From an uncultured Eubacteriales bacterium (GTDB lineage Bacteria; Bacillota; Clostridia; Peptostreptococcales; Anaerovoracaceae), in the NCBI GenBank assembly GCA_902786855.1, contig CADAEH010000001.1:248001-312000 (forward strand): a stretch of 64,000 bases of DNA, written 5' to 3'. Shown one piece after another: positions 5,529 to 37,706 of the stretch (position 1 is its first letter; the number at the start of each line of letters is the position of its first letter). Position numbers and translations under genes: made by a program. The notes beneath the pieces are model-generated. The model made no database searches. It saw nothing but the letters and a program-made list of their open reading frames with translations, and had not been told where the DNA came from.

Positions 5529-7544
5529 ATGGATGAGTACAAGAAATATGAGCCGATATTCGGATCATGGTATCTAAGCAGATTAATAGGAAAAGGCAGT
5601 TTTGGCAAGGTCTTCGAAATAGTCAGAGAGGAATACGGAACGACCTACAGATCAGCACTCAAGATCATAACGATCCCGCAGGATGACGATGATGTCAAAG
5701 CCAGGATGACTGAGGGAACAGATCTGGAAACTATATCAGAATATTATGAAAGCATCCTTAAAGAGATCGTCAATGAGAATGAGATCATGGCCCAGCTCAA
5801 GGGCAACAGCAATATTGTCAGCTACGAAGACCATCAGATCCTCCCTCATGACGACAAAATAGGATACGACATTCTCATTCGCATGGAGCTTCTGACACCT
5901 CTTATCGACCGAATGGTCGAGAGAAGACTGGATGAAGAAGAGGTCGTAAAACTCGGCATAGACATATGCAAGGCTCTCGAAGTATGTCACAAGAAGAACA
6001 TCATTCACAGAGATATCAAGCCGCAGAATATCTTTATCTCTGAAAATGGCGATTTTAAGCTTGGCGACTTCGGCATAGCCAGGACCATGGAAAAGACGAC
6101 AGGCGGAATGTCCAAGAAGGGTACATTCAAGTATATGGCGCCTGAGGTATACAGAGGAGAGCCTTATAACTCTACCGTAGATGTATATTCTCTTGGCATA
6201 GTTCTGTATGCTCTTCTGAACGGTAACAGAGGACCGTTTCTGCCGCCTCCGCCTGCAAAGGTGACATTTGCTGATGAGGAGGAAGCAAGAGCGAGGAGAT
6301 TCAAGGGTGAACCGATCCCGGCTCCAAGAGATGCAGGGCCGATGCTTGCTTACATAATCCAGAAAGCCTGTGCGAGTGATCCATGGGCAAGATATCAGAC
6401 GGCTGAGCAGATGAGGAGAGATCTTGAAAGCTATCTGGACAACTACAGCAGCCGGAATGACTATATGCCGGTGGATCCGGATGAAAAGACTGTTTTGGAT
6501 GAGAGCATCCGAGGATATGCGGGAAGCGTTGCTGCAGATCAGATGCGGTATACATCAAGACAGAACAACATGCGGAACACGGTCCAGCAGCCACAGCCTT
6601 ATATCCAGACAAGGGAAATACCGGAGAATAAACGCAAAAAAACGATCCCTCTGATCATTGCCTGTGTTGTACTCGGTATTGCAGTCGGTATCGGAGGATT
6701 TATTGCTATACAGTCTATAGGAACAAACGGAGTTAAGGACCTGGATCTGGCCGGAATGATGAGCGAACCATCATTCAGCGGCTATAATGGTTCCGGAATG
6801 ATAACGGGAAGCATCACTGCTGATGAGTCGAAAAAGCAAAGTTATCTTGCTGCCATAAAGAACATAGACAAAAGAAACAGAGCTGCAGAACTGCTCAACA
6901 GCATTTCTTATAGTCCAGAGCAGACAGAAGGCTTCAGTAATGGTGATAGTATAAATATACATGCCTCATATGATACTTCTATAGCTGAAGAGCTGGGAGT
7001 GGAGGTTACAGGTACATTCAGGAGCATCGAGGTATCAGGGCTTGAAGATCTCCCGGATTATCTCAACGGTGCTGTGGAGCATAATGGTCATTACTATAAA
7101 TTAGTTGATGATCCTATGTACTGGACTCAGGCAAAGGTAGCTTGTGAGCAGCAGAATGGACACCTGGCTACAGTTCTGGATGCAGATGAGCAGGCATTTA
7201 TAGAGAGTCTGGTGGAAAAAGGCGGTCTCTATCACTATTGGCTTGGGGCTAGTGATGAAGCATCTGAAGGAGACTGGAGATGGGTGACCGGAGAGAGAGT
7301 TCCTCTGCCGGGAGAAAGCGGATACCAGAACTGGTGCGGCAATCAGCCCAATAATATAGAGGCCTATGAAGAAGTCGGACAGGATTATATGGAACTCCAG
7401 AAGACTCGAGGCGATCAGGGAGCAGGAGAGTATATGACCTGGACAGATATAGGCGATTCCGGTGAAGCCAGTGAGATATTTTTCGGACCACCTGACTATA
7501 ATGAAACGAAATACTATGGATATATCTGTGAATGGGATATGTAG
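5529..7544 (+). CDS. Transmembrane Ser/Thr kinase with C-type lectin ectodomain (kinase 1)
   Basis: A 671-residue Hanks-type kinase. The cytosolic kinase domain spans about residues 14-310: glycine loop 'GKGSFGKVF', catalytic Lys45, HRD at 160-162 with 'KPQN', DFG at 180-182, an activation loop 'TTGGMSKKGTFKY' and APE. After the domain comes 'DEKTVLDESIRGY' with Thr321, a motif shared by the sister kinases. One transmembrane helix lies at about 371-395. Outside there is a small Ig-like module ('FSNGDSINI', about 396-510) and a C-type lectin fold (about 517-670; 'YNGHYY', 'NGHLATV', 'YWLGASDE', 'NQPNN', 'YICEWD'). It probably senses a surface or wall ligand and signals by phosphorylation; the ligand is unknown. 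Its closest relative here is the kinase at 23799, which matches over its full length. Confidence 0.93.
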   Translation: MDEYKKYEPIFGSWYLSRLIGKGSFGKVFEIVREEYGTTYRSALKIITIPQDDDDVKARMTEGTDLETISEYYESILKEIVNENEIMAQLKGNSNIVSYEDHQILPHDDKIGYDILIRMELLTPLIDRMVERRLDEEEVVKLGIDICKALEVCHKKNIIHRDIKPQNIFISENGDFKLGDFGIARTMEKTTGGMSKKGTFKYMAPEVYRGEPYNSTVDVYSLGIVLYALLNGNRGPFLPPPPAKVTFADEEEARARRFKGEPIPAPRDAGPMLAYIIQKACASDPWARYQTAEQMRRDLESYLDNYSSRNDYMPVDPDEKTVLDESIRGYAGSVAADQMRYTSRQNNMRNTVQQPQPYIQTREIPENKRKKTIPLIIACVVLGIAVGIGGFIAIQSIGTNGVKDLDLAGMMSEPSFSGYNGSGMITGSITADESKKQSYLAAIKNIDKRNRAAELLNSISYSPEQTEGFSNGDSINIHASYDTSIAEELGVEVTGTFRSIEVSGLEDLPDYLNGAVEHNGHYYKLVDDPMYWTQAKVACEQQNGHLATVLDADEQAFIESLVEKGGLYHYWLGASDEASEGDWRWVTGERVPLPGESGYQNWCGNQPNNIEAYEEVGQDYMELQKTRGDQGAGEYMTWTDIGDSGEASEIFFGPPDYNETKYYGYICEWDM

Positions 7545-7596
7545 CGTTAGCTGAAATAAATAACCACTGAAAAGCACATGAGAGAAAAACCTGATT

Positions 7597-9444
7597 ATGG
7601 ATACTGAGGAAAGAAACTATAACATTGAAGATACGGGAGCGCTGATGCTGGAGCAGCAAGCAAGAGTCAGACGCAAAGGTCTGATTCTTCTTGTTGTTGC
7701 TATTGTTGCAGTTGCAGTTGTTGCAGCAGTAGTTGGAATCAAGGTCGTCGGTGATAAGCGCTATGACGATCAGGTTGCTATAGCTGAAAAAGCGCTGAAG
7801 GAAGGTAATTACGAACAGGCCGAGACAGAGTATCTTGCAGCTGTAAAAATGAATAAGCGCAAGGTCAAAGCCCGCGAGGGACTTGCATATACATATGCTG
7901 TTGAGGAGAAGTTCGAGGAGTCGACCGACCTGTATCAGGGACTTTATGATGAGACGAAGAACGAGATATATAAAGTCGCAGCAGATGAAACAGCTTCCGG
8001 TATGATACCTTCAGTTGATGAAGTGGTCCCTGTCGAAAATCTATGGCTTGAGGTTCCTGTTGATCGCATGCCGGACCCTGAAGATTTCCTGCAGTTTATG
8101 AGCGCTTATCTGGAATATTACAGTTTCTATTCAATAGTAGATAAAGGAAAAACGGGTGATTCGTTCAAAGACTGGTATTACAATAACGAAAAACCGGAAC
8201 AGAGCTATTCCATTTTGATCGCAGAGAAACTCCTCTACGAGTATGATTATTTTGAGTATAAGGGAACGAGAGAAGACACTGCTGACCGCGACGAGGATCC
8301 AAGAGGATGGTATGATTTAGGGTATATTCAGATCGATAAGGCGACGCTCGATAGAGCCTTGATTGAACTGTTTAATACCCGTGAAGAAGATATTGAGTCT
8401 GCTGTGAAAACAGCAGAAAAAAGCCAGCTCATGTATCTGGATGGCGATTACTACTATATTATTATCTATCCTACTGACTTTAATTCTCTCAATGCATCCC
8501 CGGTAGAGATCTGGAAAAATGGTTCTAAGTACTGCATACACTATAAAGTAATTATGACCGCGATGGGCAGTAATGATACCAGTGACATCGGAGACTATTA
8601 TGCGGTGATGCGCAGAAAAGATGTTAATGGACAGCCACGATGGACGATGATATATAACGGTGTTGATATGCCATCAGAGGTAAAAGAAGGCATCCCATCC
8701 AAGGAAGGTTCTGCAGATACCACAGATAATGCTGCTGTATATAATGCCTATGCTCAAGTACTGAGAGAAAATGAGTCTGGCATTAAGGGTTATTGGTGGC
8801 AACTGGATAACAGAGGAGAATATTATAATGAATATGACTATGATACCGGCAGCGTTGCCGGTGATGTGACCAATCCATGCGTAGCGGTCAATGACCTTAA
8901 TGGCGATAGTATCCCCGAATTGTTGTTCATGAAAAAAAGTGCGGAGTATGAAGGCCAACTCCATATATACACATACTCAGGGGGCAAAGCAGTTGAATGC
9001 AGCTATTCAATCACTAATTATGGAGGCGAAAAGGGACCCTTCTCAGATGTCCATGTAGCCGCCGGGACCGTTTATATGATCTATACCGGAAAAGAAGAGT
9101 CAGTATTCTATATCGCACACGGTATGGGAGATGAAAGCTATACCGATACGATCTGTGAATTTGTCATGGATAAAAACGGTAGCATTTCTCAGAAAAACTG
9201 CATTCAGCACAAGACAGAACCTAATGAAGACTACTCAGGCACTTTGGAGACGTACACGTTTAATGACAGTGAGGTCAGCAAAGAGAAGGGATCCGGTGAG
9301 ATGAGCAGGATGCTGCAGGCATACAACAGCCTGATAATGTCCAGCTATCGACACGATGAATATGCCGAGTTCAGGAATACAGGAAATGAGAAAGCTGCAG
9401 CCATGAGCTATGATGAGGCGATCAAGAAACTTACGGAGGTCTGA
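7597..9444 (+). CDS. Membrane-anchored TPR-stalk protein with FG-GAP-like ectodomain
   Basis: A 615-residue protein. A short cytosolic tail carries 'NIEDTGALM' (Thr13), a motif shared with the proteins at 10303 and 11589. A transmembrane helix follows at about 28-51, then an extracytoplasmic TPR-like stalk ('IAEKALKEGNYEQAETEY', 'AREGLAYTYAVEEKFEE'). The large outer region is not recognised as an enzyme. Near residues 430-445 there is 'DLNGDSIPELLF', a calcium-binding-loop pattern of FG-GAP/VCBS beta-propeller repeats. It lies 52 bp after kinase 1 and overlaps nothing. The tail Thr is a plausible substrate of the neighbouring kinases, which is inference. The product is probably a surface receptor or scaffold. 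Confidence 0.85.
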   Translation: MDTEERNYNIEDTGALMLEQQARVRRKGLILLVVAIVAVAVVAAVVGIKVVGDKRYDDQVAIAEKALKEGNYEQAETEYLAAVKMNKRKVKAREGLAYTYAVEEKFEESTDLYQGLYDETKNEIYKVAADETASGMIPSVDEVVPVENLWLEVPVDRMPDPEDFLQFMSAYLEYYSFYSIVDKGKTGDSFKDWYYNNEKPEQSYSILIAEKLLYEYDYFEYKGTREDTADRDEDPRGWYDLGYIQIDKATLDRALIELFNTREEDIESAVKTAEKSQLMYLDGDYYYIIIYPTDFNSLNASPVEIWKNGSKYCIHYKVIMTAMGSNDTSDIGDYYAVMRRKDVNGQPRWTMIYNGVDMPSEVKEGIPSKEGSADTTDNAAVYNAYAQVLRENESGIKGYWWQLDNRGEYYNEYDYDTGSVAGDVTNPCVAVNDLNGDSIPELLFMKKSAEYEGQLHIYTYSGGKAVECSYSITNYGGEKGPFSDVHVAAGTVYMIYTGKEESVFYIAHGMGDESYTDTICEFVMDKNGSISQKNCIQHKTEPNEDYSGTLETYTFNDSEVSKEKGSGEMSRMLQAYNSLIMSSYRHDEYAEFRNTGNEKAAAMSYDEAIKKLTEV

Positions 9445-9446
9445 TT

Positions 9447-10280
9447 ATGTTTTGCGGAAATTGTGGAAAAAAGCTGCCGGACGATGCGATGTTCTGTCCT
9501 TTCTGCGGCGCAAAAACTGATCTGTATTATGATCAGGAATCGGGATCTGATGCCTGGGATGGGGCCTGGGACGGAGGAGCATACGCAGAAGAACCGGCAC
9601 CTGCCGCACCTGTGCAGCAGCCGGCATATACATACTCTGAAAACACCTATGTGAAGCCGGAATCAGGTCTGGATTCATTCACCAACAATATACAGGCAAA
9701 GCTGGGTGCAACGGATAACAGGCCTGTCACCCATGAGTACCAGAGACTCGGAGGCTGGCTGGCTCTTATTGCTTATGGCTGCCTGGCAGGAGCTATACTG
9801 ACACCGATAGAAGGCGTGATCAGCCTTATGGGTATGAGCAGCTTATCGTCGATGTTCGCAGGGTATCTCGACAACATGATCGCTGTAATTACATTGTTTA
9901 TCGTTATAGTATGCGGTGCTACCAGTTACCTGTGCTTCAAGATGTTTTCCAATATACTGAAGAAGGATACCGGTTTCCTGAGATTCTATGAGACGATCGG
10001 TATAGTATATATTGGTGTAATAGTGCTCGTGACAATAGTGGCATCAAGTTATATGCAAGCCACACTGGGAGAATACGCTTCTTATTTAATGCCTTCACTG
10101 ACGGGCAATACAATTGGAAGTGTCATTTCCGCAGCGCTGATATTTGCTGGCTGGACAACATATTTTGTGAAATCGGTCAGAGTCAGAACATACTTCGGAA
10201 CAGATGAATATATCAGGAAAAGCATATTCTGCAAGAACGTGACTCCACCCGTGCCGGCGGTCCCGGACAGAGACTTTTAG
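9447..10280 (+). CDS. Zinc-ribbon membrane protein with DUF2569-like domain
   Basis: A 277-residue protein beginning with a double-CxxC zinc ribbon ('MFCGNCGKKLPDDAMFCPF' then CGAK). A low-complexity Pro/Ala/Tyr linker follows, then a four-helix membrane domain starting 'YQRLGGWLALIAYG', which resembles DUF2569. No enzymatic motif is visible. The ATG at 9447 has a strong ACGGAGGT site and lies 2 bp after the stop codon of the TPR-stalk gene, so the two are translationally coupled. It is one of seven zinc-ribbon proteins in the locus. Function unknown; the ribbon probably faces the cytosol and binds a protein partner. Confidence 0.88.
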   Translation: MFCGNCGKKLPDDAMFCPFCGAKTDLYYDQESGSDAWDGAWDGGAYAEEPAPAAPVQQPAYTYSENTYVKPESGLDSFTNNIQAKLGATDNRPVTHEYQRLGGWLALIAYGCLAGAILTPIEGVISLMGMSSLSSMFAGYLDNMIAVITLFIVIVCGATSYLCFKMFSNILKKDTGFLRFYETIGIVYIGVIVLVTIVASSYMQATLGEYASYLMPSLTGNTIGSVISAALIFAGWTTYFVKSVRVRTYFGTDEYIRKSIFCKNVTPPVPAVPDRDF

Positions 10281-10302: not shown

Positions 10303-11433
10303 ATGAAAGCTAATAAACAACTTGATTATGATCCGAATCTTGAAGATACCGGCAGACTCATGACAGCATCGGGAAACCGCATCAAGAGGATCCGGATAAT
10401 TGTGGCCATTGCAGCATTGATTGTCGTGGCTGCTATTGCTGTGTTCGGAATCCGTGCGATAGGTGAGAAAAAGTATAACGATCAGATAGAGATCGCAGAA
10501 AAGGCCCTGATGGAAGGTGATTATGAGCAGGCAGAGACGAAATACCTTGCTGCGGTCGATATGAATAAAAGAAAACCTAAGGCAAGAGAAGGACTTGCTT
10601 ATGTCTATGCTTTAGAGGGTAAGTTTGAAGAAGCTACCATCGAATACCGGAATCTGTATGACGATACCGGAGACAGTATATACAGCACGGCAGCTGAGAA
10701 CACTGCTGCCGGGACAGTTCCGACAGAGGAGAAACTGATACCTGTAGAAAACCTGCCCGAGGCAGTCACGCAAGGATATCAGACAGTCACAGAGATGAAC
10801 GATCAGATGAAGACAGAGCTTGTAGACTTCATCGGATATCTGCCGTACTACTTCAACTCTTCTGTAAGCTGGGAGGATGATCCGAGCGGGAGCGGTTTTG
10901 GCAATTATGACTATAGAAATGCGGCTGAGTGCGGAATTGTCGGAGCCATTATATGGATCATTCCATGTATAGATTATTCAAAATATCCTGTGAACTTTGA
11001 GCGGGACGAAGGCGCAGACCGCAAGGACCCTCTGGGGAAAGTGCCGGATATGTGCTGCTCCAGAACTAATGCAGAGGCAGTGAACTGGGTCGCAAAGAAT
11101 ATATTCAATGCTTCTGATGAACAGATAAAAAAAGAGGTAGAGCTTTCATCTGCCGTTGATTGGAACAATAAAAAGTCCGGCAGAGATCTGTTTTACGAGT
11201 ATGAAGGATACTATTATCATATCTGGGGCGGAATAGGCTGGGAAACCAGCTATGACTTCACTATTGATAATTACACCGTTGAAGATGACTGCTTCATCAT
11301 CGACTATACACAGATCGAGTACATGATGAGTGAATCACCTTCGGATTACGTTCATTACAGGGTCCGGATGCAGTACAGGATAATAGACGGAAAAGGCTAC
11401 TGGTCACTTTACACAAGGGAAAGAGTAGAATAG
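10303..11433 (+). CDS. Membrane-anchored TPR-stalk protein, paralogue of the 7597 gene
   Basis: A 376-residue protein built like its paralogue at 7597: cytosolic tail with 'NLEDTGRLM' (Thr16), transmembrane helix at about 28-48, and a TPR-like stalk that is almost identical in pattern ('IAEKALMEGDYEQAETKY', 'AREGLAYVYALEGKFEEA'). The outer domain (about 150-376) is different and rich in Trp, Tyr and Asp; I do not recognise it. The conserved inside and stalk with a changed outer domain mirrors the pattern of the kinases. The ribosome binding site is weak. Gene order and spacing (22 bp) indicate the same transcript as the zinc-ribbon gene before it. Confidence 0.83.
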   Translation: MKANKQLDYDPNLEDTGRLMTASGNRIKRIRIIVAIAALIVVAAIAVFGIRAIGEKKYNDQIEIAEKALMEGDYEQAETKYLAAVDMNKRKPKAREGLAYVYALEGKFEEATIEYRNLYDDTGDSIYSTAAENTAAGTVPTEEKLIPVENLPEAVTQGYQTVTEMNDQMKTELVDFIGYLPYYFNSSVSWEDDPSGSGFGNYDYRNAAECGIVGAIIWIIPCIDYSKYPVNFERDEGADRKDPLGKVPDMCCSRTNAEAVNWVAKNIFNASDEQIKKEVELSSAVDWNNKKSGRDLFYEYEGYYYHIWGGIGWETSYDFTIDNYTVEDDCFIIDYTQIEYMMSESPSDYVHYRVRMQYRIIDGKGYWSLYTRERVE

Positions 11434-11588
11434 ATGCCAGGCGTTCCTTGTTGAACCAGATCGTGAAAAAGTGTATTTCGGGTCTGAAAACAGGCATTCC
11501 GTTACATATCTGACTTTTGGCTCAGATGCACTGCTATTCTTAAGACAGTAAAAACAAGTTGTTTAAAACACATCATCCAGGAAGAAGT

Positions 11589-13307
11589 ATGGGCCGACAC
11601 AGAGAAAACGCAGCAATGCAGAATGATATAAATATCGAAGATACCGGGGCGCTGATGACGAGATCCCGGAGAAGCGTACGGATCAGGAGAATTCTTCTGA
11701 TCCTCCTCGCTGTCATTGCTGTGCTCGCTATAGTGATGGCCGGTCTCCTCCTGATAGGAGAAAAGCAATACAACGAGCAGATCGTTATCGCGGAAAAGGC
11801 CCTTGCAGAGAGCAACTATGAGCAGGCAGAAGCAGGTTACCTGGCTGCGGTCAATATGCGCAGGCGCAGTGTTATCAAGCTGCGCAAACGCAATATCAAT
11901 GCGCTTGAAGGTCTGGCATACGTATATGCTGCAGAGAAAAAAGTAAACGAATCTGTAACGATATACGATCAGCTCTATGCTGAAACAAAAGAAGAAAAGT
12001 ATATAGATGCATCAAAGGAAGTTTCAGAAGGCGGACTTCCATCGGATCCGGATATCATTCCGGATGTTATAACGGATACATCTGATACATCTGCGAGACA
12101 GGAAACCGGACGGACAGATACCGGTGACAATTCGGGTAACGATCCGGATAAAAATACTGGCGAGTATGTAATGACCTCCGGTGCAACTGATGGCAAGACC
12201 CGCGATATCGCTCTGGTCCTGGATACATCGGGCAGTATGGACGGAGAGCCGATCCATGAGGTCGCAAGTGCAGTTTCGCGTTTCGGAGATACTGTACTGG
12301 GCACAACTGCAAAAGTTGGCGTCATATCATTCAGCAGTCAGGCAGAGGTGATGCTGCCGCTTTCTGCGAGCAATGATCAGATATCGAAAACAGCTGCTGA
12401 GCTTGAAAGTTTTGGCGGTACAAATATAGGAGCGGGTCTCGCAGCGGCAGCAGATATGCTTTCCGGAAGCACAGCGGACCGCAAGATAGTAGTTCTGATG
12501 ACGGACGGAGAACCGACTGACGGAATGGATACGGATGAGCTCATTCAATATGCCGGCAGGCTCAAGGAGCAAGGATATCTTGTCTATACACTGGGCTTTT
12601 TCTCTTCGATGTCGCCGGGGAGCAAGTCAGAGCCGCAGCGGCTTCTTGAGCACATTGCATCTGAGGGATGCCACTACGAGGTGTCCGATGCATCTGATCT
12701 CAAGTTCTTCTTCGGGGATATTGCCGATCAGATCAACGGCGTGCGCTACAATTACATACGTATCGCATGTCCGGTCAATGTATCTGTAAGCTACAACGGA
12801 GAGACACTTTCATCTGCAAGAACAGACAGCAGAGCCCGCACATCTTTCGGGACACTCACTTTTGAGGATGCATATAGAGGTGATGACGATTATGAAGGGG
12901 ATGGCGCAAACGCTGTAAAGATACTCAGGCTGCTCGAAGGTCCTGACTATGAGATCTCCATCAAGGGCACCGGCAACGGCTCTATGGATTATACGATAGG
13001 ATTCGTTGATGATAACGGGGAATACAGCGACATGCGTTACTTTGATCAGATCGAGATCAGTCCGAGGACTGAGATATCGACTGAGGCCAGAGTATCTGAT
13101 GTAACAAAGATGACTGTAGACTATGATGGAAACGGCATCATCGATAAGACCTATAAAGCAAAAGCCAGCAGCCATGCTGAGATAGTAGATAACACGCTGA
13201 CCGTAAAAATAGTGATGATCATATCTGCGGTCATATACGCGCTGCTGCTCTTCCTGATCATTCGGAGTACAGTCAGGCGCATACGCAGAAACATCAGAAT
13301 GATGTGA
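11589..13307 (+). CDS. Membrane protein with TPR stalk and von Willebrand factor A domain
   Basis: A 572-residue protein from the ATG at 11589 (AGGAAGA just upstream). An in-frame TTG at 11559 and an ATG at 11616 are alternatives; 11616 would still keep the tail motif. The tail has 'NIEDTGALM' (Thr19), then a transmembrane helix (about 33-55) and the same TPR-like stalk as its two paralogues. A vWA domain follows with the MIDAS metal site: 'DTSGS' at 212-216, a Thr in 'FGGTNIG', and Asp in 'MTDGEP'. A second hydrophobic helix near the C-terminus ('MIISAVIYALLLFLII') and a basic tail would anchor the other end. vWA domains bind proteins through a metal ion, so this is likely an adhesion or assembly module exposed at the surface. 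Confidence 0.88.
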   Translation: MGRHRENAAMQNDINIEDTGALMTRSRRSVRIRRILLILLAVIAVLAIVMAGLLLIGEKQYNEQIVIAEKALAESNYEQAEAGYLAAVNMRRRSVIKLRKRNINALEGLAYVYAAEKKVNESVTIYDQLYAETKEEKYIDASKEVSEGGLPSDPDIIPDVITDTSDTSARQETGRTDTGDNSGNDPDKNTGEYVMTSGATDGKTRDIALVLDTSGSMDGEPIHEVASAVSRFGDTVLGTTAKVGVISFSSQAEVMLPLSASNDQISKTAAELESFGGTNIGAGLAAAADMLSGSTADRKIVVLMTDGEPTDGMDTDELIQYAGRLKEQGYLVYTLGFFSSMSPGSKSEPQRLLEHIASEGCHYEVSDASDLKFFFGDIADQINGVRYNYIRIACPVNVSVSYNGETLSSARTDSRARTSFGTLTFEDAYRGDDDYEGDGANAVKILRLLEGPDYEISIKGTGNGSMDYTIGFVDDNGEYSDMRYFDQIEISPRTEISTEARVSDVTKMTVDYDGNGIIDKTYKAKASSHAEIVDNTLTVKIVMIISAVIYALLLFLIIRSTVRRIRRNIRMM

Positions 13308-27102: not shown

Positions 27103-27149
27103 AAAACATATTGAGAAGGATAACGATAAGTTCTAAGGAGAGTAAAACT

Positions 27150-30654: not shown

Positions 30655-30674
30655 ATAACGGGAGGAATAGTAAT

Positions 30675-32588
30675 ATGTTTTGTCCAAAGTGCGGTACTCA
30701 ACTCGAAGAAGGCGATCTGTTTTGCCCTAACTGCGGTACACGGATCTCTGCCCCTGCGGAACTAAACAATAGCATTGTAAATAGAAATAATGCAATAGAA
30801 GCAAGGGCTTATGAAGTTACGGAGAAGCCGTTTCCGTTCAGGAACAGACCGGGCATCGTAAAGCCTAAGCGGCGCATCGACACAAAATGGATCATCGGGA
30901 TCGCGCTGATCGTCCTGGTCGCAGCCGGAGCTGTTGCAGCTTTTACTCTGCTGGGCGGCAAGGGCTCAGGTAAAAATACTGTCGTCATGTTGTCAGACGG
31001 CCAATATATAGTCACTAACAACCCGGCAAAAGAAAAAAAGAATATTGAGATGGCGTCCGCTCATAATGATTATACATATGACAATCTAGTAAGATTCAGC
31101 CCGGACGGTAAGTATGTTTATTACTTTACTAAGCTGGAAGACTACCGTGGTTCATTATGCAAGGCAGAAATCGGAAAGTTGAAAAAAGACTCTTCGAAAA
31201 ATGATAAGTATATTGAAACGATAGCATCGAATGCTATGCCGGGCCTGCACATGATGCGCAATGGTACTCTGGTGTATATGGCAGGCGAGAATAATCTGTA
31301 CTATTACGATGGAAAAGAATCGATACAGATCGCTAAAAACATCGATGACTACTGGACGGACAAAGACTACAGAATAGTCTATTCTGTTTCACAGACCGAT
31401 GAATATGATGACTATCAATCATATGCGCTGTATGGAGTAGACCTCAACGATATCGACAACAAATTCAAGATGGCGTCAGATGTATCGTTCACCAATTATG
31501 TCGAAGATTTTGACAGAATAGTCTTTGGGAAGTACGATGCTTACGATAATTCATCGCTGTATATGACAGCATTCGGAAAGGAGCCTGAGAAATTAAGTAA
31601 CAATGGTTATATCGTTCTGAATAAAGGGGATGATTTCTACTATATGGACGGGACAGGCAGAAAGCTGAATCTGTATGACTATGTAAATGATGATGCAGCA
31701 AGCGATGACTATTACTATGACGACATAAGGTATGAACTCAGAAGTGATGAGAATGCAGTACCTGTCTACAACCTGTATAGTTATAAAAAAGGGGCAAAGC
31801 AACTGGTCGCTGAGAATGTGCTTAACGCATATGGCGAAAACGGATTAATAGTGTATAACACAGTTGATATGATAAATGATAAGGTGTCGATCTATGATGT
31901 AGGAGACACATATGACGTGAATAGAATCTTTGATATCAACTATGAGGTCGCAAATTACATACTTGCCGATGAACCGGACAGGAAGCTGAAAATGTCATCG
32001 AGGACAGCAGATGTTCTGGGATTATACAATGAGGATACATGGGCTTCTTTCTATGTGGTAGGTCCGAGAATATATGTTACCTCAGGTTCCGGCATCTTTG
32101 AAACAGCTGTCAACGACGGAGAGATCGCCGGTGATAAGGTCATAACTGATGAAGGAAATGTTATGGGAACCGATGACAACAGCCTGTACTATAATGCTAA
32201 CGGGTATGATGGCAGCGAGGCTTATTTCTGCGATATCTATAAAGTTACTGATGGAGAAAAAGTCCGTCTTGCTCAGGATGTGGCAAGCTCCGATCTTCAG
32301 CTGTATGAAGACGGAAACCTTTTCGCGTATACTGACTACAGATATTACGGTGATCAGGGAAGCGGAGAACTGGCCATATTTAATCCGGCAGGCGAGAAAA
32401 AGAAAGTAGGAGATGACGTTACGCAGTATGTCCGTGTAGATAAGAACAAGGTCCTGTTCATTTCCGATGATAAACTGTATCTGTTCGACGGAAAAGAAAA
32501 AGAGTCACTTCAGAATGACGTTGAGCAGATCTGGTGCAAGAACTACCTGAAGCCAACAGATACATTGATCTATGGCATTGGAGACTGA
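30675..32588 (+). CDS. Zinc-ribbon, single-pass membrane protein with beta-propeller-like ectodomain
   Basis: A 637-residue protein. The open frame reaches back into the kinase gene, but the ATG at 30675 has GGGAGG 9 bp upstream and begins exactly at the ribbon. An N-terminal zinc ribbon ('MFCPKCGTQLEEGDLFCPN') is followed by a basic linker, a transmembrane helix at about 76-96, and a large Asp/Tyr-rich outer domain. That domain has recurring 'YYxDG', 'YVYYFTK' and 'LYYYDGKES' elements, as in the propeller-like DUF5050 type of repeats. No catalytic motif is seen. Probably a cell-surface sensor or binding protein linked to the locus through its cytosolic ribbon. Confidence 0.85.
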   Translation: MFCPKCGTQLEEGDLFCPNCGTRISAPAELNNSIVNRNNAIEARAYEVTEKPFPFRNRPGIVKPKRRIDTKWIIGIALIVLVAAGAVAAFTLLGGKGSGKNTVVMLSDGQYIVTNNPAKEKKNIEMASAHNDYTYDNLVRFSPDGKYVYYFTKLEDYRGSLCKAEIGKLKKDSSKNDKYIETIASNAMPGLHMMRNGTLVYMAGENNLYYYDGKESIQIAKNIDDYWTDKDYRIVYSVSQTDEYDDYQSYALYGVDLNDIDNKFKMASDVSFTNYVEDFDRIVFGKYDAYDNSSLYMTAFGKEPEKLSNNGYIVLNKGDDFYYMDGTGRKLNLYDYVNDDAASDDYYYDDIRYELRSDENAVPVYNLYSYKKGAKQLVAENVLNAYGENGLIVYNTVDMINDKVSIYDVGDTYDVNRIFDINYEVANYILADEPDRKLKMSSRTADVLGLYNEDTWASFYVVGPRIYVTSGSGIFETAVNDGEIAGDKVITDEGNVMGTDDNSLYYNANGYDGSEAYFCDIYKVTDGEKVRLAQDVASSDLQLYEDGNLFAYTDYRYYGDQGSGELAIFNPAGEKKKVGDDVTQYVRVDKNKVLFISDDKLYLFDGKEKESLQNDVEQIWCKNYLKPTDTLIYGIGD

Positions 32589-32629
32589 CCTCTGTAAAAA
32601 CTGGATCTAATTGAATGGAGAGTGACAAT

Positions 32630-33082
32630 ATGGCTATTTATGATGATTTAAAGGGTAAAATATCACTGACAGGCCAGTCAGCTGTCAGCAAGGTAAAGGA
32701 TCTCTCTGAGACTGTCCGCCTGACTGGCACGATCAGTGAGGTCGAAAGTGAGATCAACGAGCTTTACAAAAAGATCGGATATGAGACCTATGTGGCATAT
32801 TTAAATGATTCTGTTCCGGAAACAGAGGAACTGATATCTCAGGTGAGTGCGCTGCATCAGAGGATCGAGGACATGAAAGCACAGATGCAGGCCATCCAGA
32901 CGGCTAACACATGTCCGAACTGCGGCAGCAAAACTAAGATGGGAATGTTATTCTGCAGCAACTGCGGTTTTAAACTGCCGGAACCGGTTGCAGAGGAACA
33001 TCCGGGTTTCTGCAAAAACTGCGGAGCGCCGATCGTGAAGGGAGCACAGTTCTGCACATCATGCGGGACCCCGCTTAAATAG
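32630..33082 (+). CDS. Soluble coiled-coil protein with two zinc ribbons
   Basis: A 150-residue protein. The ATG at 32615 is in frame, but 32630 has GGAG at the right distance. Residues 1-90 are mostly helical and charged, with a coiled-coil feel ('VESEINELYKKIGYE', 'QRIEDMKAQMQAIQ'). Two CxxC zinc-ribbon units follow ('CPNCGSKTKMGMLFCSNC' and 'FCKNCGAPIVKGAQFCTSC'). There is no membrane helix, so it is a cytosolic zinc-ribbon protein. Probably an adaptor; function unknown. Confidence 0.85.
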   Translation: MAIYDDLKGKISLTGQSAVSKVKDLSETVRLTGTISEVESEINELYKKIGYETYVAYLNDSVPETEELISQVSALHQRIEDMKAQMQAIQTANTCPNCGSKTKMGMLFCSNCGFKLPEPVAEEHPGFCKNCGAPIVKGAQFCTSCGTPLK

Positions 33083-33192: not shown

Positions 33193-35106
33193 ATGGAAGA
33201 GTACAGAAAATATGAGCCGATATTCGGTTCGTGGTATCTGAACAGATTAATAGGTAAAGGCAGCTTCGGCAAGGTATTCGAGATCATAAGGGAGGAGTAC
33301 GGGACGACTTACAGATCCGCGCTCAAGATCATTACCATTCCGCAGGACGATGACGATGTCAAGACCAGGATGACTGAAGGGTCGGATATAAAGACGGTAT
33401 CCGAGTACTATGAGGGGATCCTCAGAGAGATCATCAATGAGAATGAGATCATGGCTCAGCTCAAGGGCAACAGCAATATCGTCAGCTATGAAGACCATCA
33501 GATCATTCCTCACGGGGACGGGATCGGGTATGATATCCTGATCAGAATGGAGCTTCTGACACCTCTCATCGACCGCATGATCGAGAAAAGACTTGATGAA
33601 AAAGATGTTGTAAAACTCGGCATAGACATCTGCAAAGCACTTGAGATATGCCATAAGAAGAACATCATCCACAGAGACATCAAGCCGCAGAACATTTTTA
33701 TCTCGGACAACGGCGATTATAAGCTCGGAGATTTTGGCATAGCCAGAACTATGGAAAAGACCACAGGGGGCATGTCCAAGAAGGGCACATACAAATATAT
33801 GGCGCCTGAGGTGTTCAGGGGAGAAGATTATGACTCTACCGTAGACATCTACTCTCTGGGCATAGTCCTGTATTCCCTGCTCAACGGCAACAGGGGACCG
33901 TTTCTCCCGCCTCCGCCTGCAAAGGTGACACATAATGATGAGGACGAGGCGAGACTGAGAAGGTTCAGGGGAGAGCCACTGCCTCCGCCGAGAGACGCAG
34001 GACCGATGCTTGCATATGTAATCCAGAAGGCCTGCGCAAATGATCCATTGGAGAGGTATCGCACTGCCGGGCAGATGAGGAGAGACCTCGAGAGCTACCT
34101 GAACAATTATGGGCTTCAGGCAGACACGGCATCAGCAGATCTGTCTGAAGAGGATACAGTCCTGGATGAGAGCATACGAGGATATACCGGGAGCTATGCC
34201 GGCAGATACACGGGAAGATATAATACTGCAGGTTCCCGCACCGGCAGCGTTTCCTATCGGAATAATACCGGATCCGGATCAGCTGACTATTCGCTGACCC
34301 GCCGCCATGAACAGGAGATACGGGAGAGGCAGGAGCGTGAGCGTAAGATGAAACTTGCCGGGATAATAGGCGGTGCCGCACTGGCTGTGGTCATATTGCT
34401 TGGCGTGATCATATTCAAGGTAGTGATCCCGCAACATCAGTATAATACTGCACTTGAGGGCTCTGAGAACGGAAACTATTCGGAAGCATCCAGTGAAGAC
34501 CCGGCGTCCAGGAAAAAGAATAAGCAGTGTATCGCTTTATACCAGAAGGTACTCGACGGCAGCTATGTGCCGGACGGCATTGAGGATGCTGATTTTGGAA
34601 GTAAGATCAAGGATCCCGGGCGAGCATCATTCGCATTTTGCCGGATCGTCGAGGGCGGTATCCCTGTACTTGCTGTCCAGATCGACAGTACCGTTTATTT
34701 CATCGGAATCGATGAAAACGGAGACGGGAGTCTCGGCTCACCGAGGTTTATAAGAGGCAGAGATCCTGCACCTTATAATGCCTCAGCATTCACCAAAAGA
34801 AAATACTACGAAAATATGGGATATATCACGTTTGAGGTCCAGTATAATGACGGCTCGTATCAGGAATGGATCCCGCTTTATCCGGGACAGGGCGACAATC
34901 TCTACAGAAGATACTATAAAAAAATGGATGAAGAGCATAAAGAGCATACCGTTTTCTATATTACGGACCGTGATGGGAAGAATACTCGCTACCCGGAAAA
35001 GGATCCATTCTATGATGAGCTGCATTTACGCACAGACAAAAACGCTAGCAGAGATATATTATTCACACAAAACACAGAAGAGGCTCGCGACAATATTTCA
35101 TGGTAG
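33193..35106 (+). CDS. Transmembrane Ser/Thr kinase with unrecognised ectodomain (kinase 6)
   Basis: A 637-residue kinase with the shared cytosolic domain ('GKGSFGKVFEIIREE', Lys45, 'HRDIKPQN', 'LGDFGIARTMEK', 'GGMSKKGTYKYMAPE') and 'EEDTVLDESIRGY' (Thr322). The juxtamembrane part contains R-Y-T-G and related short repeats and a charged 'RRHEQEIRERQERERK' helix. The transmembrane helix is at about 393-415. The outer 220 residues begin with 'YNTALEGSENGNYSEAS' and then have an aromatic-rich beta pattern ('GGIPVLAVQIDSTVYFIG', 'GYITFEVQYNDGSYQEWIPL'); I do not recognise the fold. This kinase supports the idea of one signalling core with swapped sensors. Confidence 0.9.
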   Translation: MEEYRKYEPIFGSWYLNRLIGKGSFGKVFEIIREEYGTTYRSALKIITIPQDDDDVKTRMTEGSDIKTVSEYYEGILREIINENEIMAQLKGNSNIVSYEDHQIIPHGDGIGYDILIRMELLTPLIDRMIEKRLDEKDVVKLGIDICKALEICHKKNIIHRDIKPQNIFISDNGDYKLGDFGIARTMEKTTGGMSKKGTYKYMAPEVFRGEDYDSTVDIYSLGIVLYSLLNGNRGPFLPPPPAKVTHNDEDEARLRRFRGEPLPPPRDAGPMLAYVIQKACANDPLERYRTAGQMRRDLESYLNNYGLQADTASADLSEEDTVLDESIRGYTGSYAGRYTGRYNTAGSRTGSVSYRNNTGSGSADYSLTRRHEQEIRERQERERKMKLAGIIGGAALAVVILLGVIIFKVVIPQHQYNTALEGSENGNYSEASSEDPASRKKNKQCIALYQKVLDGSYVPDGIEDADFGSKIKDPGRASFAFCRIVEGGIPVLAVQIDSTVYFIGIDENGDGSLGSPRFIRGRDPAPYNASAFTKRKYYENMGYITFEVQYNDGSYQEWIPLYPGQGDNLYRRYYKKMDEEHKEHTVFYITDRDGKNTRYPEKDPFYDELHLRTDKNASRDILFTQNTEEARDNISW

Positions 35107-35149: not shown

Positions 35150-36901
35150 ATGGAAGAATACAGAAAGTATGAGCCGATATTCGGGTCATGGTATCTGAGC
35201 AGGCTGATCGGCAAAGGCAGCTTTGGCAAGGTCTTTGAGATAGTCAGAGAAGAATATGGAACTACATACAGATCTGCGCTCAAGGTCATTTCTGTGCCTC
35301 AGGATGATGACGATATCAGGTCGCGGATGACTGACGGGAACGGAGTGGAATCTGTAACCGAGTATTATGAGGGCATCCTGAAGGAGATCATCAACGAAAA
35401 CGAGATCATGGCCCAGCTCAAGGGCAACAGCAATATCGTCAGCTATGAAGACCACCAGATCATCCCGCATGCAGACGGTATAGGCTACGACATACTCATA
35501 CGTATGGAGCTCCTGACACCTCTGATCGATCGCATGGTCGAGAAGAAACTGGATGAGAAAGAGGTCGTGAAACTCGGCATAGACATGTGCAAGGCTCTTG
35601 AGGTGTGCCACAGGAAGAATATCATTCACAGAGACATCAAGCCTCAGAACATCTTCATTTCGGATACCGGCGATTTCAAGCTCGGTGATTTTGGCATAGC
35701 CAGAACGATGGAGAAGACCACAGGCGGCATGTCGAAGAAGGGCACATACAAGTACATGGCGCCGGAAGTGTTCCACGGGGAGCATTATGATTCTACTGTT
35801 GATATATATTCCCTTGGTATAGTTCTGTATTCGCTCCTGAACGGCAACAGAGGACCGTTTCTCCCGCCTCCGCCGGCTAAAGTGACACACAATGATGAAG
35901 AAGAAGCAAGGATGAGGAGGTTCAGAGGAGAGCCGATCCCTGCACCGAGAGACGCAGGACCGATGCTTGCATATATAATCCAGAAGGCTTGCGCAAACGA
36001 TCCGTGGGACAGATATCAGACTGCTGAACAGATGAGGGGAGACCTCGAGAGTTATCTGAACAATTATGGTATGCAGGCAGATCCGGCAATAGCAGACATC
36101 TTCGGGGAAGAAACCGTCCCGGATGCGAACATCAGAGGTTACACCGGAAGATACACAGGCAGATATACGGGAAGATATACAGGAAAATTCGATTCTGCAG
36201 ACCGCCGCACCGGGAGCTATACTTCCCCGGGTTACAATACCGGCAGTATACCTCCATATCAGGCAAGGAATACGATGGGTCCGTATAATACTCAGAATAT
36301 CCCTGTTCAGCCTTACGGTGAGCCGGGCAATAACGGCGGAAAAGGAAAAAAGACGATGCTGATTGCAGGGGCGGTCGTAGTAGCGATCCTGCTGATCTGC
36401 GGAGCTGTTACTGTAACCTCTCTTGTATTACGGAATTCCGGATCTGACACCGCATCAAGTGATGCCGGCCAGAGTGGGCATGAAGAATATTACAATGAGG
36501 ACGATGTGAGTAATACCGGCTCAAATGAAGCCTCGCAGAGTCAAAGCAATATTAATGACTCACAGAACGCCAATGTGAATACAGAACCATATGAACAGGA
36601 TAACGGTTCGGCGGCTGCCTACAGCGATGAATATATAATGCCTGATGCAGATATAAGGGTCTATGAAAGCTGGGAGATCGCAGATTTCGATGAACACGAT
36701 ACCCAGATGGCGATCAATGAACTGTTTGCAAGACATGGGCGCATCTTCAAGGACGACGATGTCAGAAGATATTTTAATAATATATCCTGGTATTATCCTG
36801 AAAAGGAAGAAGTTGATCCTAAGGAAGAGTTCAATTCCTGTGAATATCAGAACTATAATCTGCTCTGCAACCATAGAGATGAATTAAAGAAAAATGATTA
36901 G
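35150..36901 (+). CDS. Transmembrane Ser/Thr kinase with YARHG ectodomain (kinase 7)
   Basis: A 583-residue kinase with the shared cytosolic domain (Lys45, 'HRDIKPQN', 'LGDFGIARTMEK') and 'GEETVPDANIRGY' (Thr322), followed by four R-Y-T-G units in a row. A transmembrane helix lies at about 404-425. After an Asn/Ser/Gln-rich stalk the C-terminus is a YARHG domain ('MAINELFARHGRIFKDDDV', 'YFNNISWYYP'), a module found outside the cell in Gram-positive and other bacteria and thought to bind wall components. The next gene, an amidase, overlaps it by 8 bp, which hints that the wall is both sensed and cut by this pair. Confidence 0.92.
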   Translation: MEEYRKYEPIFGSWYLSRLIGKGSFGKVFEIVREEYGTTYRSALKVISVPQDDDDIRSRMTDGNGVESVTEYYEGILKEIINENEIMAQLKGNSNIVSYEDHQIIPHADGIGYDILIRMELLTPLIDRMVEKKLDEKEVVKLGIDMCKALEVCHRKNIIHRDIKPQNIFISDTGDFKLGDFGIARTMEKTTGGMSKKGTYKYMAPEVFHGEHYDSTVDIYSLGIVLYSLLNGNRGPFLPPPPAKVTHNDEEEARMRRFRGEPIPAPRDAGPMLAYIIQKACANDPWDRYQTAEQMRGDLESYLNNYGMQADPAIADIFGEETVPDANIRGYTGRYTGRYTGRYTGKFDSADRRTGSYTSPGYNTGSIPPYQARNTMGPYNTQNIPVQPYGEPGNNGGKGKKTMLIAGAVVVAILLICGAVTVTSLVLRNSGSDTASSDAGQSGHEEYYNEDDVSNTGSNEASQSQSNINDSQNANVNTEPYEQDNGSAAAYSDEYIMPDADIRVYESWEIADFDEHDTQMAINELFARHGRIFKDDDVRRYFNNISWYYPEKEEVDPKEEFNSCEYQNYNLLCNHRDELKKND

Positions 36902-37706
36902 AAGGCACTGGAGACTTATACTTGCTTTAGAACTGATAATTGCAATGGCACTGATCGGTGTTATTGCTTATATCCATATCAATAACCTTAAAGCAGAGGA
37001 AGAGACTGCAGCTGTCTCCGGAGCAAAGGATAACGGTTCCGCAAGTGACACAGCATCGGTGGGCAGCGGTGATGCGGATCCTTCCGATACTGCAGCACAA
37101 ACACAGAAAACTGACGGGAATTCCGGAAAGACGGCAACTCAGTATACTGTTTTTGTTGAGACTGGTCACGGTACGGATGAGAACGGAAACTGGGATACCG
37201 GTTGCACCTGGTCGGACGGAACGACAGAATACGTCGAGGCAGATGTGATGCTCCCTATTGCAAAGTCTATGGTGAAATATCTTCGTGATTCAGGCGTCAC
37301 AGTCATCACAGACGCAGACAGCGGCAATGACTCGAATCTGTTTGCAGCACTTGATTATATGGAAACACATCAGGTCGACGCTTTCGTCAATCTACATTGT
37401 GACTACGAGGGCGCTGACTCAGGAACAATGCCTCTGTACAGAACAGACGAGCAAAAGGCATTAGGTCTGGCTCTGTCAAAAGGAGTACATGAATACATAG
37501 ATATTCCGGACAGAGGCCCGCAATACAGAGAAGATCTGGATACCCTTAACAGTGAAAAGCCAAAGTGCCCGGCAGTACTGTTTGAGACAGGCTGCATCAG
37601 TTCAGACAATAAGATCCTGACAACACAGTACGATGAATACGGGAAAGGACTCGCGAAAGGAATGTGCGACTTCTTGGGTATTAGATTCCATGAGGCAGAG
37701 AAATAA
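36894..37706 (+). CDS. Membrane-anchored N-acetylmuramoyl-L-alanine amidase family protein (Amidase_3)
   Basis: A 270-residue protein with an N-terminal signal anchor (about 7-26), a Ser/Asp/Thr-rich linker and an Amidase_3 domain outside. Zinc ligands and catalytic residues are visible: 'VETGHGTDENG', the Glu of 'EADVMLPIAKSM', the His of 'FVNLHCDYEG', and the catalytic Glu in 'VLFETGCISS'. The family cleaves the bond between muramic acid and L-alanine in peptidoglycan. The ATG at 36894 overlaps the YARHG kinase gene by 8 bp. It could be an output enzyme of the kinase system. Confidence 0.9.
   Translation: MIRRHWRLILALELIIAMALIGVIAYIHINNLKAEEETAAVSGAKDNGSASDTASVGSGDADPSDTAAQTQKTDGNSGKTATQYTVFVETGHGTDENGNWDTGCTWSDGTTEYVEADVMLPIAKSMVKYLRDSGVTVITDADSGNDSNLFAALDYMETHQVDAFVNLHCDYEGADSGTMPLYRTDEQKALGLALSKGVHEYIDIPDRGPQYREDLDTLNSEKPKCPAVLFETGCISSDNKILTTQYDEYGKGLAKGMCDFLGIRFHEAEK

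What the first reader, a model, noticed from the sequence alone, without database searches (positions are those of the whole stretch)
5529..37706. Seven Ser/Thr kinases, one PP2C phosphatase and an FHA exporter in one 32-kb string
Directly seen: seven complete kinases with intact Lys, HRD and DFG motifs (5529, 14047, 17742, 23799, 28915, 33193, 35150), a single PP2C gene (28104) and an FHA-ABC ATPase (20682), all on the + strand with short or overlapping spacers. Known: bacteria usually carry few such kinases per locus, and Hanks-type kinases with PP2C and FHA form phospho-Thr circuits. Inference: it is one sensory system in which several surface sensors feed a common phospho-signal. I know of no described system with this composition.
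Basis: partly seen in the sequence, partly recalled or inferred. Interest (0 to 1): 0.85.

Follow-up and report, generated by a model that had tools for sequence, protein, structure and literature searches.

The report
Sensor-kinase array beside type VII secretion
A ruminant-gut bacterium carries, next to a protein-secretion machine, a row of surface sensors that share almost the same kinase engine, together with phosphatases, phospho-threonine readers and a repeat protein that looks made to be phosphorylated, so many outside signals could be merged into one internal signal.

Summary
In detail: seven intact Hanks kinases, a PP2C and an FHA-ABC gene lie on one strand. But the locus is larger. 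Directly upstream is a type VII secretion (T7SS) locus: EssC above its curated cut-off, YukD, WXG100 genes, an RHS candidate substrate, an eighth (PASTA) kinase, a second PP2C and FHA-bearing proteins. Eight of 11 kinase hits and 5 of 6 FHA hits of the genome fall in 54 kb. In 48 genomes of the genus, all 5 with this EssC carry array-type kinases; 1 of the other 43 does. Five kinases share 86-93% identical catalytic domains but differ outside (three C-type lectins). Kinase halves group by genome, lectin halves by orthology: the engine stays uniform while sensors diverge. A Zn-ribbon/SHOCT protein just before the PP2C carries tandem acidic-Thr units (Thr in 21 of 22 units, four species). I read it as a shared phospho-Thr hub for FHA readers; nothing here shows phosphorylation. 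T7SS with kinase, phosphatase and FHA is already described (T7SSc-j), a related kinase/FHA-ABC island occurs without such an EssC in another genus, and FHA-ABC was not seen in the clade's other genomes, so control of secretion is unproven. New variant of a known kind.

The parts
58..3846 (+). C-terminal part of a 1620-aa RHS protein (whole gene G000:C1:246984-251846), candidate T7SS substrate
   Evidence: RHS_repeat E 1e-106; start lies upstream of the window, DUF6531 in its N-terminal part
4503..5504 (+). GDPD phosphodiesterase with N-terminal hydrophobic stretch
   Evidence: GDPD E 2e-22; relatives in the G066 and G008 loci
5529..7544 (+). Kinase kLec1: kinase - linker with EKTVLD - TM - C-type lectin
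   Evidence: Pkinase 1e-42, Lectin_C 1e-12; TM and linker
7597..9444 (+). TPR protein with N-terminal tail NIEDTGALM before a hydrophobic stretch
   Evidence: TPR_16 5e-07, just under its cut-off; tail shared with G008 and G071
9447..10280 (+). Zn-ribbon + DUF2569 protein
10303..11433 (+). TPR-like protein, tail NLEDTGRLM
   Evidence: TPR under cut-off; tail
11559..13307 (+). VWA protein, tail NIEDTGALM
   Evidence: VWA 5e-22; tail
13345..14007 (+). Zn-ribbon protein
14047..16128 (+). Kinase kTPR: kinase - TM - TPR
   Evidence: Pkinase 1e-51, TPR; TM; 58% relatives beside the T7SS in G008 and G071
16393..16947 (+). Zn-ribbon protein with weak DUF4190 match
16963..17754 (+). Lgt-like prolipoprotein diacylglyceryl transferase
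   Evidence: LGT 9e-47; under the NCBIfam cut-offs; 56% relative in G066
17742..20648 (+). Kinase kLRR: kinase - linker with EATVF - TM - leucine-rich repeats
   Evidence: Pkinase 2e-38, LRR_4 6e-31; TM and linker
20682..21971 (+). FHA - ABC ATPase; FHA motifs GR, SRKH, LNG intact
   Evidence: FHA 2e-16, ABC_tran 4e-25; motifs; no FHA hit in a frame of this size in the other four clade genomes
21985..22824 (+). ABC2 permease, probable partner of the FHA-ABC ATPase
   Evidence: ABC2_membrane 2e-15
22989..23783 (+). Zn-ribbon protein
23799..25811 (+). Kinase kLec2: kinase - linker EETVVD - TM - N-terminal ectodomain - C-type lectin
   Evidence: Pkinase 5e-43, Lectin_C 4e-16; TM and linker; model matches C-type lectins
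25855..27102 (+). Calcineurin-like phosphoesterase
   Evidence: Metallophos 1e-06; relatives in G066, G008 and G002 stretches
27111..28091 (+). Proposed phospho-Thr hub: Zn-ribbon, 7 units [FL]E[DN]EKT[VA]VLDD and an eighth degenerate unit, SHOCT
   Evidence: SHOCT and Zn_Ribbon; 42-bp repeats; units; alignment
27294..27609 (+). 42-bp tandem repeat coding the acidic-Thr units
   Evidence: TRF, 7.3 copies of 42 bp, also 2.5 of 126 bp
28104..28889 (+). PP2C phosphatase with metal-site motifs kept
   Evidence: PP2C 4e-17; motifs; a PP2C directly before a kinase also in G071, L014, L015, L017, G309
28915..30654 (+). Kinase kLec3: kinase - linker EGTVVD - TM - C-type lectin
   Evidence: Pkinase 7e-43, Lectin_C 1e-12; TM and linker
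30639..32588 (+). Zn-ribbon protein with large C-terminal part
32615..33082 (+). Double Zn-ribbon protein
33193..35106 (+). Kinase with linker EDTVLD, TM and unassigned ectodomain
   Evidence: Pkinase 4e-42; TM and linker; ectodomain model unusable, pLDDT 51
35150..36901 (+). Kinase with linker EETVPD, TM and YARHG ectodomain
   Evidence: Pkinase 3e-43, YARHG 5e-11; TM and linker
36894..37706 (+). N-acetylmuramoyl-L-alanine amidase, overlapping the last kinase gene
   Evidence: Amidase_3 2e-19

Best explanation
A locally concentrated phospho-threonine circuit attached to a type VII secretion locus. Membrane kinases with different outside domains (C-type lectins, LRR, TPR, PASTA, YARHG) carry the same kind of cytoplasmic kinase domain. 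On stimulation they phosphorylate a common class of acidic-Thr motifs: in their own linkers, in the tails of TPR/VWA proteins (EDT[GA]xLM), and above all in the repeat protein 27111, a multivalent hub. FHA domains of the double-FHA protein, of the protease-like FHA protein, of EssC and, in this genome, of the ABC exporter 20682 read the marks and so gate secretion and export; the PP2Cs reset them. Shown: the genes, their linkage in relatives, uniform kinase halves with diverging sensor halves, repeats with nearly invariant Thr, FHA signature motifs. Inferred: phosphorylation, FHA binding, convergence, and control of secretion.
For: 8 of 11 kinase hits and 5 of 6 FHA hits of the genome lie in 53.65 kb. 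In 48 genomes of the genus (own included), 5 of 5 with this EssC have array-type kinases (A1 E<1e-150) against 1 of 43 without (Fisher 3.5e-6; the genomes are related and the cut-offs were chosen after seeing the tables, so this p is optimistic). EssC, PP2C_b and kinases share a contig in 4 of those 5. In G008 no kinase was seen in the 15 kb before EssC, so the array kinases are the ones next to it. Kinase domains 86-93% identical among five paralogs; AU tests reject kinase-half orthology (p 0.0004, 0.0007) and grouping of the lectin halves by genome (p 4e-6). Repeat protein directly before PP2C_b in G000, G066, G008 and G071: 22 recognisable units, 21 with Thr, one degenerate G000 unit with Ala, none with Ser; Thr-motif counts 8, 7 and 4 in G000, G066 and G008 against shuffle means of 0.72, 0.50 and 0.41. 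No hit to its profile at E<=1e-12 in the other 296 genomes of the order sample. Linker motif [DE]xT[VMTLI] in 7 of 7 own and 12 of 24 relatives' kinase linkers (1.6 and 3.1 expected from shuffles). FHA-ABC and second FHA of the double-FHA protein: GR/SRxH/NG kept.
Against: The Ser version of the linker motif is also above shuffles (own 6 of 7, 1.7 expected; relatives 10 of 24, 4.25 expected), and the pattern was fixed after the linkers had been looked at. Over whole proteins acidic-Thr motifs are no more enriched than acidic-Ser ones. 6 of 12 array-type kinases of G066 lack the linker motif. G008's 4 repeat motifs equal the highest of 5000 shuffles. G002, which has this EssC, gave only a SHOCT-end match to the repeat profile (30 bits). 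FHA-ABC was not seen in the other four clade genomes. A kinase/PP2C/FHA-ABC island occurs in G301 and G309, which gave no EssC match at E<=1e-100, so the array need not serve the T7SS; 7 of 10 order genomes with an EssC match have no A1 kinase at E<=1e-70. EssC FHA has K for R in G000 and G for S in G002 and G008. Tree support for the kinase groupings is moderate (0.86, 0.79) and most forks of the careful kinase tree are open. The genomes of the clade are incomplete (79-90%).
Confidence: 0.45

Rival explanations
1. Two neighbouring but separate modules: (A) a T7SS with its own PASTA-kinase/PP2C/FHA triad, as in described T7SS variants, and (B) a PP2C-kinase island, in this genome with an FHA-ABC exporter, for envelope export or homeostasis that expanded its sensors and merely sits beside the T7SS.
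For: PP2C, kinases and FHA-ABC without an EssC match (E<=1e-100) in G301 (=L014) and G309, and PP2C-kinase with FHA-ABC in the fetched stretches L015 and L017. Kinase-PP2C-FHA run before EssC, with one kinase seen, in G237. GDPD, phosphoesterase, Lgt-like and amidase genes in the array point to the envelope.
Against: Array-type kinases at high identity are found almost only with this EssC in the genus; in G008 the array kinases and the repeat protein follow the WXG100 genes and no kinase was seen before EssC, and G071 has the same downstream order (its contig starts inside EssC). FHA-ABC is missing from the other four clade genomes as far as seen; their FHA hits lie mostly on the T7SS contig (7 of 8 in G066, 4 of 5 in G002, 3 of 5 in G008; the only one of G071 is elsewhere).
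Confidence: 0.35
2. Insulated parallel sensors: tandem duplication gave many kinases, gene conversion keeps their catalytic halves alike, but each kinase has its own partner and there is no common signal.
For: Within-genome conversion signature: synonymous differences lower in kinase halves (pS 0.28-0.47 among three G066 copies) than in the rest (0.71-0.78); weaker in G000 (0.48-0.69 against 0.68-0.84).
Against: Strong purifying selection on the kinase halves (pN 0.04-0.07 in G000 against 0.25-0.61 in the rest); one repeat protein and one PP2C in the window array.
Confidence: 0.15
3. An anti-phage defence island built on kinases.
For: Kinase domains match PADLOC PD-T4-6 and MADS6 models, and the FHA-ABC ATPase matches mad3 and mad8.
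Against: The kinase matches lie in or around the generic kinase domain and the mad3/mad8 matches in the ATPase; PP2C, repeat protein and VWA had none, and MADS6 is far under its NCBIfam cut-off (105 and 124 of 460 bits).
Confidence: 0.03

Closest known systems
T7SSe / T7SSj (Garrett, Higginson & Palmer 2024, PMC11217815; abstract, sections 7, 9, 14, 15, 16 and passages read)
   Same: EssC-type ATPase with FHA, WXG100 proteins, YukD-like protein, membrane kinase, PPM phosphatase, separate FHA protein, small apparent single-TM protein, RHS candidate substrate
   Different: No full TsxI-like Ig giant found, no DUF6382 in the FHA protein; instead a multi-sensor kinase array, an FHA-ABC exporter and a tandem-Thr repeat protein, none of which I saw in what I read of the paper
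PknF / Rv1747 FHA-ABC exporter of mycobacteria (abstract starts in the listing)
   Same: Hanks kinase gene beside an ABC exporter ATPase with FHA
   Different: One kinase and two FHA domains there; here split ATPase and permease, one FHA, many kinases
T6SS threonine-phosphorylation pathway (PpkA-PppA-Fha; names partly recalled, Agrobacterium case told in PMC11217815)
   Same: Kinase, phosphatase and FHA protein at a secretion locus (logic); double-FHA protein matches the TagH model weakly
   Different: Different secretion machine; FHA match is under the TagH cut-off (65 of 120 bits)
PrkC/PrpC-type PASTA kinase and PP2C pairs (passage of PMC6213207)
   Same: PP2C gene directly next to the kinase gene
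   Different: Window kinases have lectin, LRR, TPR, YARHG or unassigned ectodomains; only the upstream kinase has PASTA

Membership tests
Type VII secretion system | EssC/EccC FtsK-type ATPase | tested here: met
   NCBIfam T7_EssCb_Firm 1056 bits, cut-off 778; YukB structure 9qks E 2e-131
Type VII secretion system | WXG100 proteins at the locus | tested here: met
   WXG100 over cut-off for four small proteins, one just under (26.9 of 27.3); a sixth, 125 aa, without match
T7SSb | EssB/YukC (PF10140) | tested here: not met
   0 of 5 genomes of the clade; among the controls B. subtilis rings
T7SSe/T7SSj | FHA-bearing ATPase, YukD-like protein, membrane kinase and PPM phosphatase | tested here: met
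T7SSe/T7SSj | TsxI, large Ig-like envelope protein | tested here: not met
   1905-aa protein of G036 as query: no match in G066, G008, G071; only 30-34% over about 130 aa in G000 and G002; genomes incomplete
T7SSe/T7SSj | TsxJ with DUF6382 + FHA | tested here: not met
   Double-FHA protein shows no DUF6382 in G000 and G002; other proteins of the genome not scanned
T7SSc-j subtypes | Place of TsxC in the published ATPase tree | not tested
   Reference accessions not at hand
PknF/Rv1747-type phospho-regulated exporter | FHA domain on ABC exporter ATPase, kinase adjacent | tested here: met
   kinase 17742 ends 33 bp before it
PknF/Rv1747-type phospho-regulated exporter | Two FHA domains (listing), with the permease on one polypeptide (recalled) | tested here: not met
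   One FHA, separate permease gene; the 763- and 803-aa relatives in G309 and L013 have two FHA stretches and a permease
PP2C-PASTA kinase pair | PASTA ectodomain | tested here: not met
   None of the seven window kinases; met by the upstream kinase
Phospho-Thr/FHA circuit | Phosphorylation of Thr sites and FHA binding | not testable with these tools
   needs biochemistry

The most novel reading that the evidence does not exclude
A sensor-integrating secretion switch: interchangeable surface receptors (lectin, LRR, PASTA, YARHG) with a catalytic domain kept uniform by concerted evolution write on one multivalent tandem-Thr hub, whose phosphorylation state is read by FHA domains of the T7SS ATPase, its companions and an exporter, so that secretion is triggered by combinations of outside cues. 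In effect this would be a bacterial counterpart of many receptors sharing one phospho-scaffold.
Probability: 0.25. Interest if true: 0.85.

Novelty: new variant of a known kind. Interest (0 to 1): 0.62.

Why it matters
T7SS variants with kinases, phosphatases and FHA proteins were described in 2024 from gene neighbourhoods and models, and what their kinases sense or mark is open. This locus offers a concrete, testable acceptor (repeat Thr in 27111), named readers and candidate sensors. The split history of kinase and sensor halves suggests how bacteria can multiply receptors while keeping one output.

Tried and rejected
Whole-protein acidic-Thr motif enrichment: not Thr-specific, dropped as evidence (superlocus 33 of 975 Thr and 26 of 1323 Ser, background 25 of 1606 and 16 of 1847). 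Promoter scan: no more sites than shuffles (33 against 32.3 in 23-42 kb, 37 against 35.9 in 3.8-23.7 kb); terminator-like sites exceed shuffles (23 against 13.5; 22 against 12.6, both strands together) and neither support nor exclude one transcript. Structure of the 33193 ectodomain: pLDDT 51, not used. kLec2 ectodomain: C-type lectin fold by Foldseek, top hits a Ca-independent shellfish lectin and a galactose-type human lectin, but the second half of the lectin is modelled poorly (blocks of 36-75 pLDDT from residue 181), so no sugar preference is claimed; the EPN/QPD-like positions vary, and the link of such motifs to sugars is recalled. Defence-system reading rejected. Literature: in the listings no title or abstract start points to a multi-kinase array at a T7SS or a bacterial tandem-Thr FHA hub; the library lacks most subscription papers. 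The preference of FHA domains for certain residues at pThr+3 is recalled.

Rows dropped: L010 was left out of the linker test because it duplicates G008; kTPR-type kinases, linkers under 15 residues and proteins without a found TM were not among the 24. The notebook says 13 G066 kinases on contig 25; the listing gives 12. The notebook also writes 8 repeat units for G000 in one place; the count used here is 7 with Thr and one degenerate.
Full report
What is there. The window is G000:C1:248001-312000 of a 2.9-Mb, 62-contig, 87%-complete genome. The named relatives found are MAGs, several with ruminant gut in their titles; the closest kinase match listed is on a 'Mogibacterium sp.' contig from sheep jejunum (JAFWMD010000049.1, 89%), whose length equals that of G066 contig 25. 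All seven kinases, the PP2C and the FHA-ABC ATPase are confirmed. All kinases keep Lys, HRD and DFG. The genes taken from 4503 to 38163 run on the + strand with a median spacing of 25 bp.

Outside the window. The stretch just upstream (L001, L002) carries, in order: a kinase with three PASTA stretches (C1:231252), PP2C (233489), double-FHA protein (234471), Zn-ribbon protein with a weak DnaJ_C match (235747), a 68-aa protein with one apparent TM by eye (236282), EssC with FHA (236485-241518), LytTR regulator (241515), a 218-aa protein without Pfam match (242227), YukD (242862), a 125-aa protein and five WXG100-like proteins (243214-245323), a trypsin-like protein with C-terminal FHA (245329) and the RHS protein whose end opens the window (246984-251846). 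EssC passes the NCBIfam cut-off (1056 against 778 bits). EssB/YukC gave no match in the five genomes of the clade. So the finding is the downstream half of a T7SS superlocus.

Concentration. Of 11 Pkinase hits in the genome 8, and of 6 FHA hits 5, lie between C1:231252 and 284901, 1.9% of the assembly. In 243 genomes of the class, 232 have a Pkinase hit at E<=1e-30; only this genome exceeds seven (at most 10 candidates scored per genome).

Conservation. Among 48 genomes of the genus, own included, EssC of this clade (64% identity or more) occurs in G000, G002, G008, G066 and G071; four others have a more distant EssC. Kinases matching the array profile A1 at E<1e-150 occur in the same five and in G010 (71% complete). 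Four of the five hold EssC, PP2C_b and kinases on one contig: G000; G066, with 12 A1 matches (E<=1e-20) between 67 and 118 kb of contig 25, its T7SS starting at 122 kb, and three PP2C relatives; G008; G071. In G002 EssC and the PP2C and kinase genes are on separate short contigs. In 297 genomes of the order 10 have an EssC match at E<=1e-100 and 9 an A1 kinase at E<=1e-70; three have both (G000, G253, G237), each with the two genes within about 5 kb; 7 of the 10 have EssC without such a kinase. Against a simple T7SS reading: G301 and G309 have PP2C, kinases, FHA-ABC and FHA proteins (VWA-FHA and Zn-ribbon proteins in G309) without such an EssC match. And FHA-ABC itself was not seen in the clade's other four genomes: no FHA hit there lies in a frame of that size. 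The kinase part therefore looks like a module that can live apart and has been joined to, and expanded beside, a T7SS in this clade, with the exporter as a variable partner.

Uniform engine, changing sensor. Kinase domains of 5529, 23799, 28915, 33193 and 35150 are 86-93% identical; 17742 and the PASTA kinase are about 51-56% to them, 14047 about 33-35%. In a tree, the five G000 domains group together and five G066 domains group together (support 0.86 and 0.79), yet by ectodomain kLec1 is nearest to one G066 lectin kinase (62%) and kLec2 to another (57%). AU tests on 10 lectin kinases: the kinase half rejects kLec1+G066_LecA (p 0.0004) and kLec2+G066_LecB (p 0.0007); the lectin half rejects one clade of the three G000 lectins (p 4e-6) and kLec1+kLec2 (p 4e-71) (the groups were named after the tree, and most forks of the small kinase tree are open). 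Synonymous differences in kinase halves are lower within a genome (three G066 copies pS 0.28-0.47 against 0.71-0.78 in the rest of the same genes; G000 0.48-0.69 against 0.68-0.84), and amino-acid-changing differences are very low in kinase halves (pN 0.04-0.07 in G000 against 0.25-0.61 in the rest). This is what concerted evolution plus purifying selection of a shared catalytic module would give.

The proposed hub. Gene 27111 codes an N-terminal Zn-ribbon, a 42-bp tandem repeat giving seven units [FL]E[DN]EKT[VA]VLDD plus a degenerate eighth with Ala at the Thr position, and a C-terminal SHOCT. It ends 12 bp before PP2C 28104. G066 has the same architecture with seven units FEN[DE]ETxxL. In G008 the corresponding protein has four units (DEKT[VM]II, EATVII), SHOCT and a second Zn-ribbon. 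In G071 three units and the Zn-ribbon are read in one frame and the SHOCT in another. In all four the gene lies directly before PP2C_b. So 21 of 22 recognisable units have Thr, one Ala, none Ser. Profile A4 finds only matches of up to about 35 bits, at the SHOCT end, in the other 44 genomes of the genus, G002 among them, and none at E<=1e-12 in the other 296 genomes of the order sample. A separate series of five such motifs lies in the linker of the T7SS-side kinase of G237, from another family. Thr-motif counts are 8, 7, 4 and 5 for G000, G066, G008 and the G237 linker, with shuffle means of 0.72, 0.50, 0.41 and 0.37 and maxima of 5, 4, 4 and 3 in 5000; the Ser versions count 1, 0, 0 and 2. 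The N-terminal tails of three TPR/VWA proteins here and of one each in G008 and G071 share EDT[GA]xLM. Kinase linkers carry [DE]xT[VMTLI] in 7 of 7 non-TPR kinases here (1.6 expected) and 12 of 24 from relatives (3.1 expected); the Ser form in 6 of 7 (1.7) and 10 of 24 (4.25). Over whole proteins there is no Thr-specific enrichment. I therefore rest the hub idea on the repeats and the tails, not on motif counts elsewhere.

Readers. Signature positions GR / SRxH / NG are kept in the FHA-ABC protein and in the second FHA of the double-FHA protein; the first FHA of that protein has A for N; EssC FHA of G000 has GK, SRKH, NG, while G002 and G008 have G for S and G066 keeps S with GK; the protease-like FHA protein has GK, SRHH, NG. 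Whether they bind pThr is untested.

Mechanism. The most likely scheme is: ectodomain cue, kinase activation, phosphorylation of hub and tails, FHA recruitment at the T7SS and, here, at the exporter, reset by PP2C. Only anatomy and conservation are shown. The main rival is that the island is an envelope-signalling module of its own and the T7SS keeps its own triad; I give it 0.35 against 0.45.

Known and new. Garrett et al. 2024 (abstract, sections 7, 9, 14, 15 and 16 and passages read) describe T7SSc-j, several with kinase, PPM phosphatase, FHA proteins and RHS or LXG substrates, and suggest phospho-control. This locus shares that plan but fails two features they give for T7SSe/j (TsxI-like protein; DUF6382) and EssB of T7SSb, so I leave it as an unassigned T7SS variant. 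Two kinase papers searched for the word (PMC6213207, PMC1262709) have 0 occurrences of 'lectin'. In the searches named under Tried and rejected I found no description of a multi-sensor kinase array at a T7SS or of a tandem-Thr hub.

Noticed in passing
L013:8817-9980; L014:19424-20512: Genes with an N-terminal TIR domain and FHA domains beside FHA-ABC and kinase genes (TIR_2 and two FHA stretches by Pfam for L013; the L014 gene looks alike but was not scanned).
   Followed up: partly
L002:13329-14831 (C1:245329-246831): Trypsin-like protein with C-terminal FHA; in G000 the expected His and Ser positions read D and E, so it may be a pseudoprotease; G066, G002 and G036 keep a His-like motif, and my Ser pattern found nothing in those three.
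   Followed up: partly
16963-17754: An Lgt-like gene inside the array, also in the G066 array (56%); may modify local lipoproteins.
   Followed up: no
linkers of kinases 5529, 23799, 33193, 35150; G066 C25 array: YTG or YAG motifs, often repeated, between kinase domain and TM (e.g. RGYTGRYTGRYTG, MRQYTGQYT), unexplained.
   Followed up: no
4503-5504, 25855-27102, 36894-37706: GDPD, calcineurin-like phosphoesterase and amidase genes between or beside the kinases; GDPD and phosphoesterase relatives also in the G066 and G008 stretches, pointing to envelope lipid or wall turnover.
   Followed up: partly
9447, 13345, 16393, 22989, 27111, 30639, 32615: Seven proteins with similar Zn-ribbons fused to unrelated parts; similar ones recur in relatives' islands, role unknown.
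   Followed up: no
L029:14777-15700 (G071): Repeat-hub gene lies in two reading frames before PP2C_b; frameshift or assembly error not distinguished.
   Followed up: partly
L032:1691-16482 and on (G036:C2): Another congener (G036, similarly G021) carries a different T7SS with a 1905-aa Ig-like TsxI-type protein, kinases and FHA proteins, in G036 also PP2C and trypsin-FHA.
   Followed up: partly
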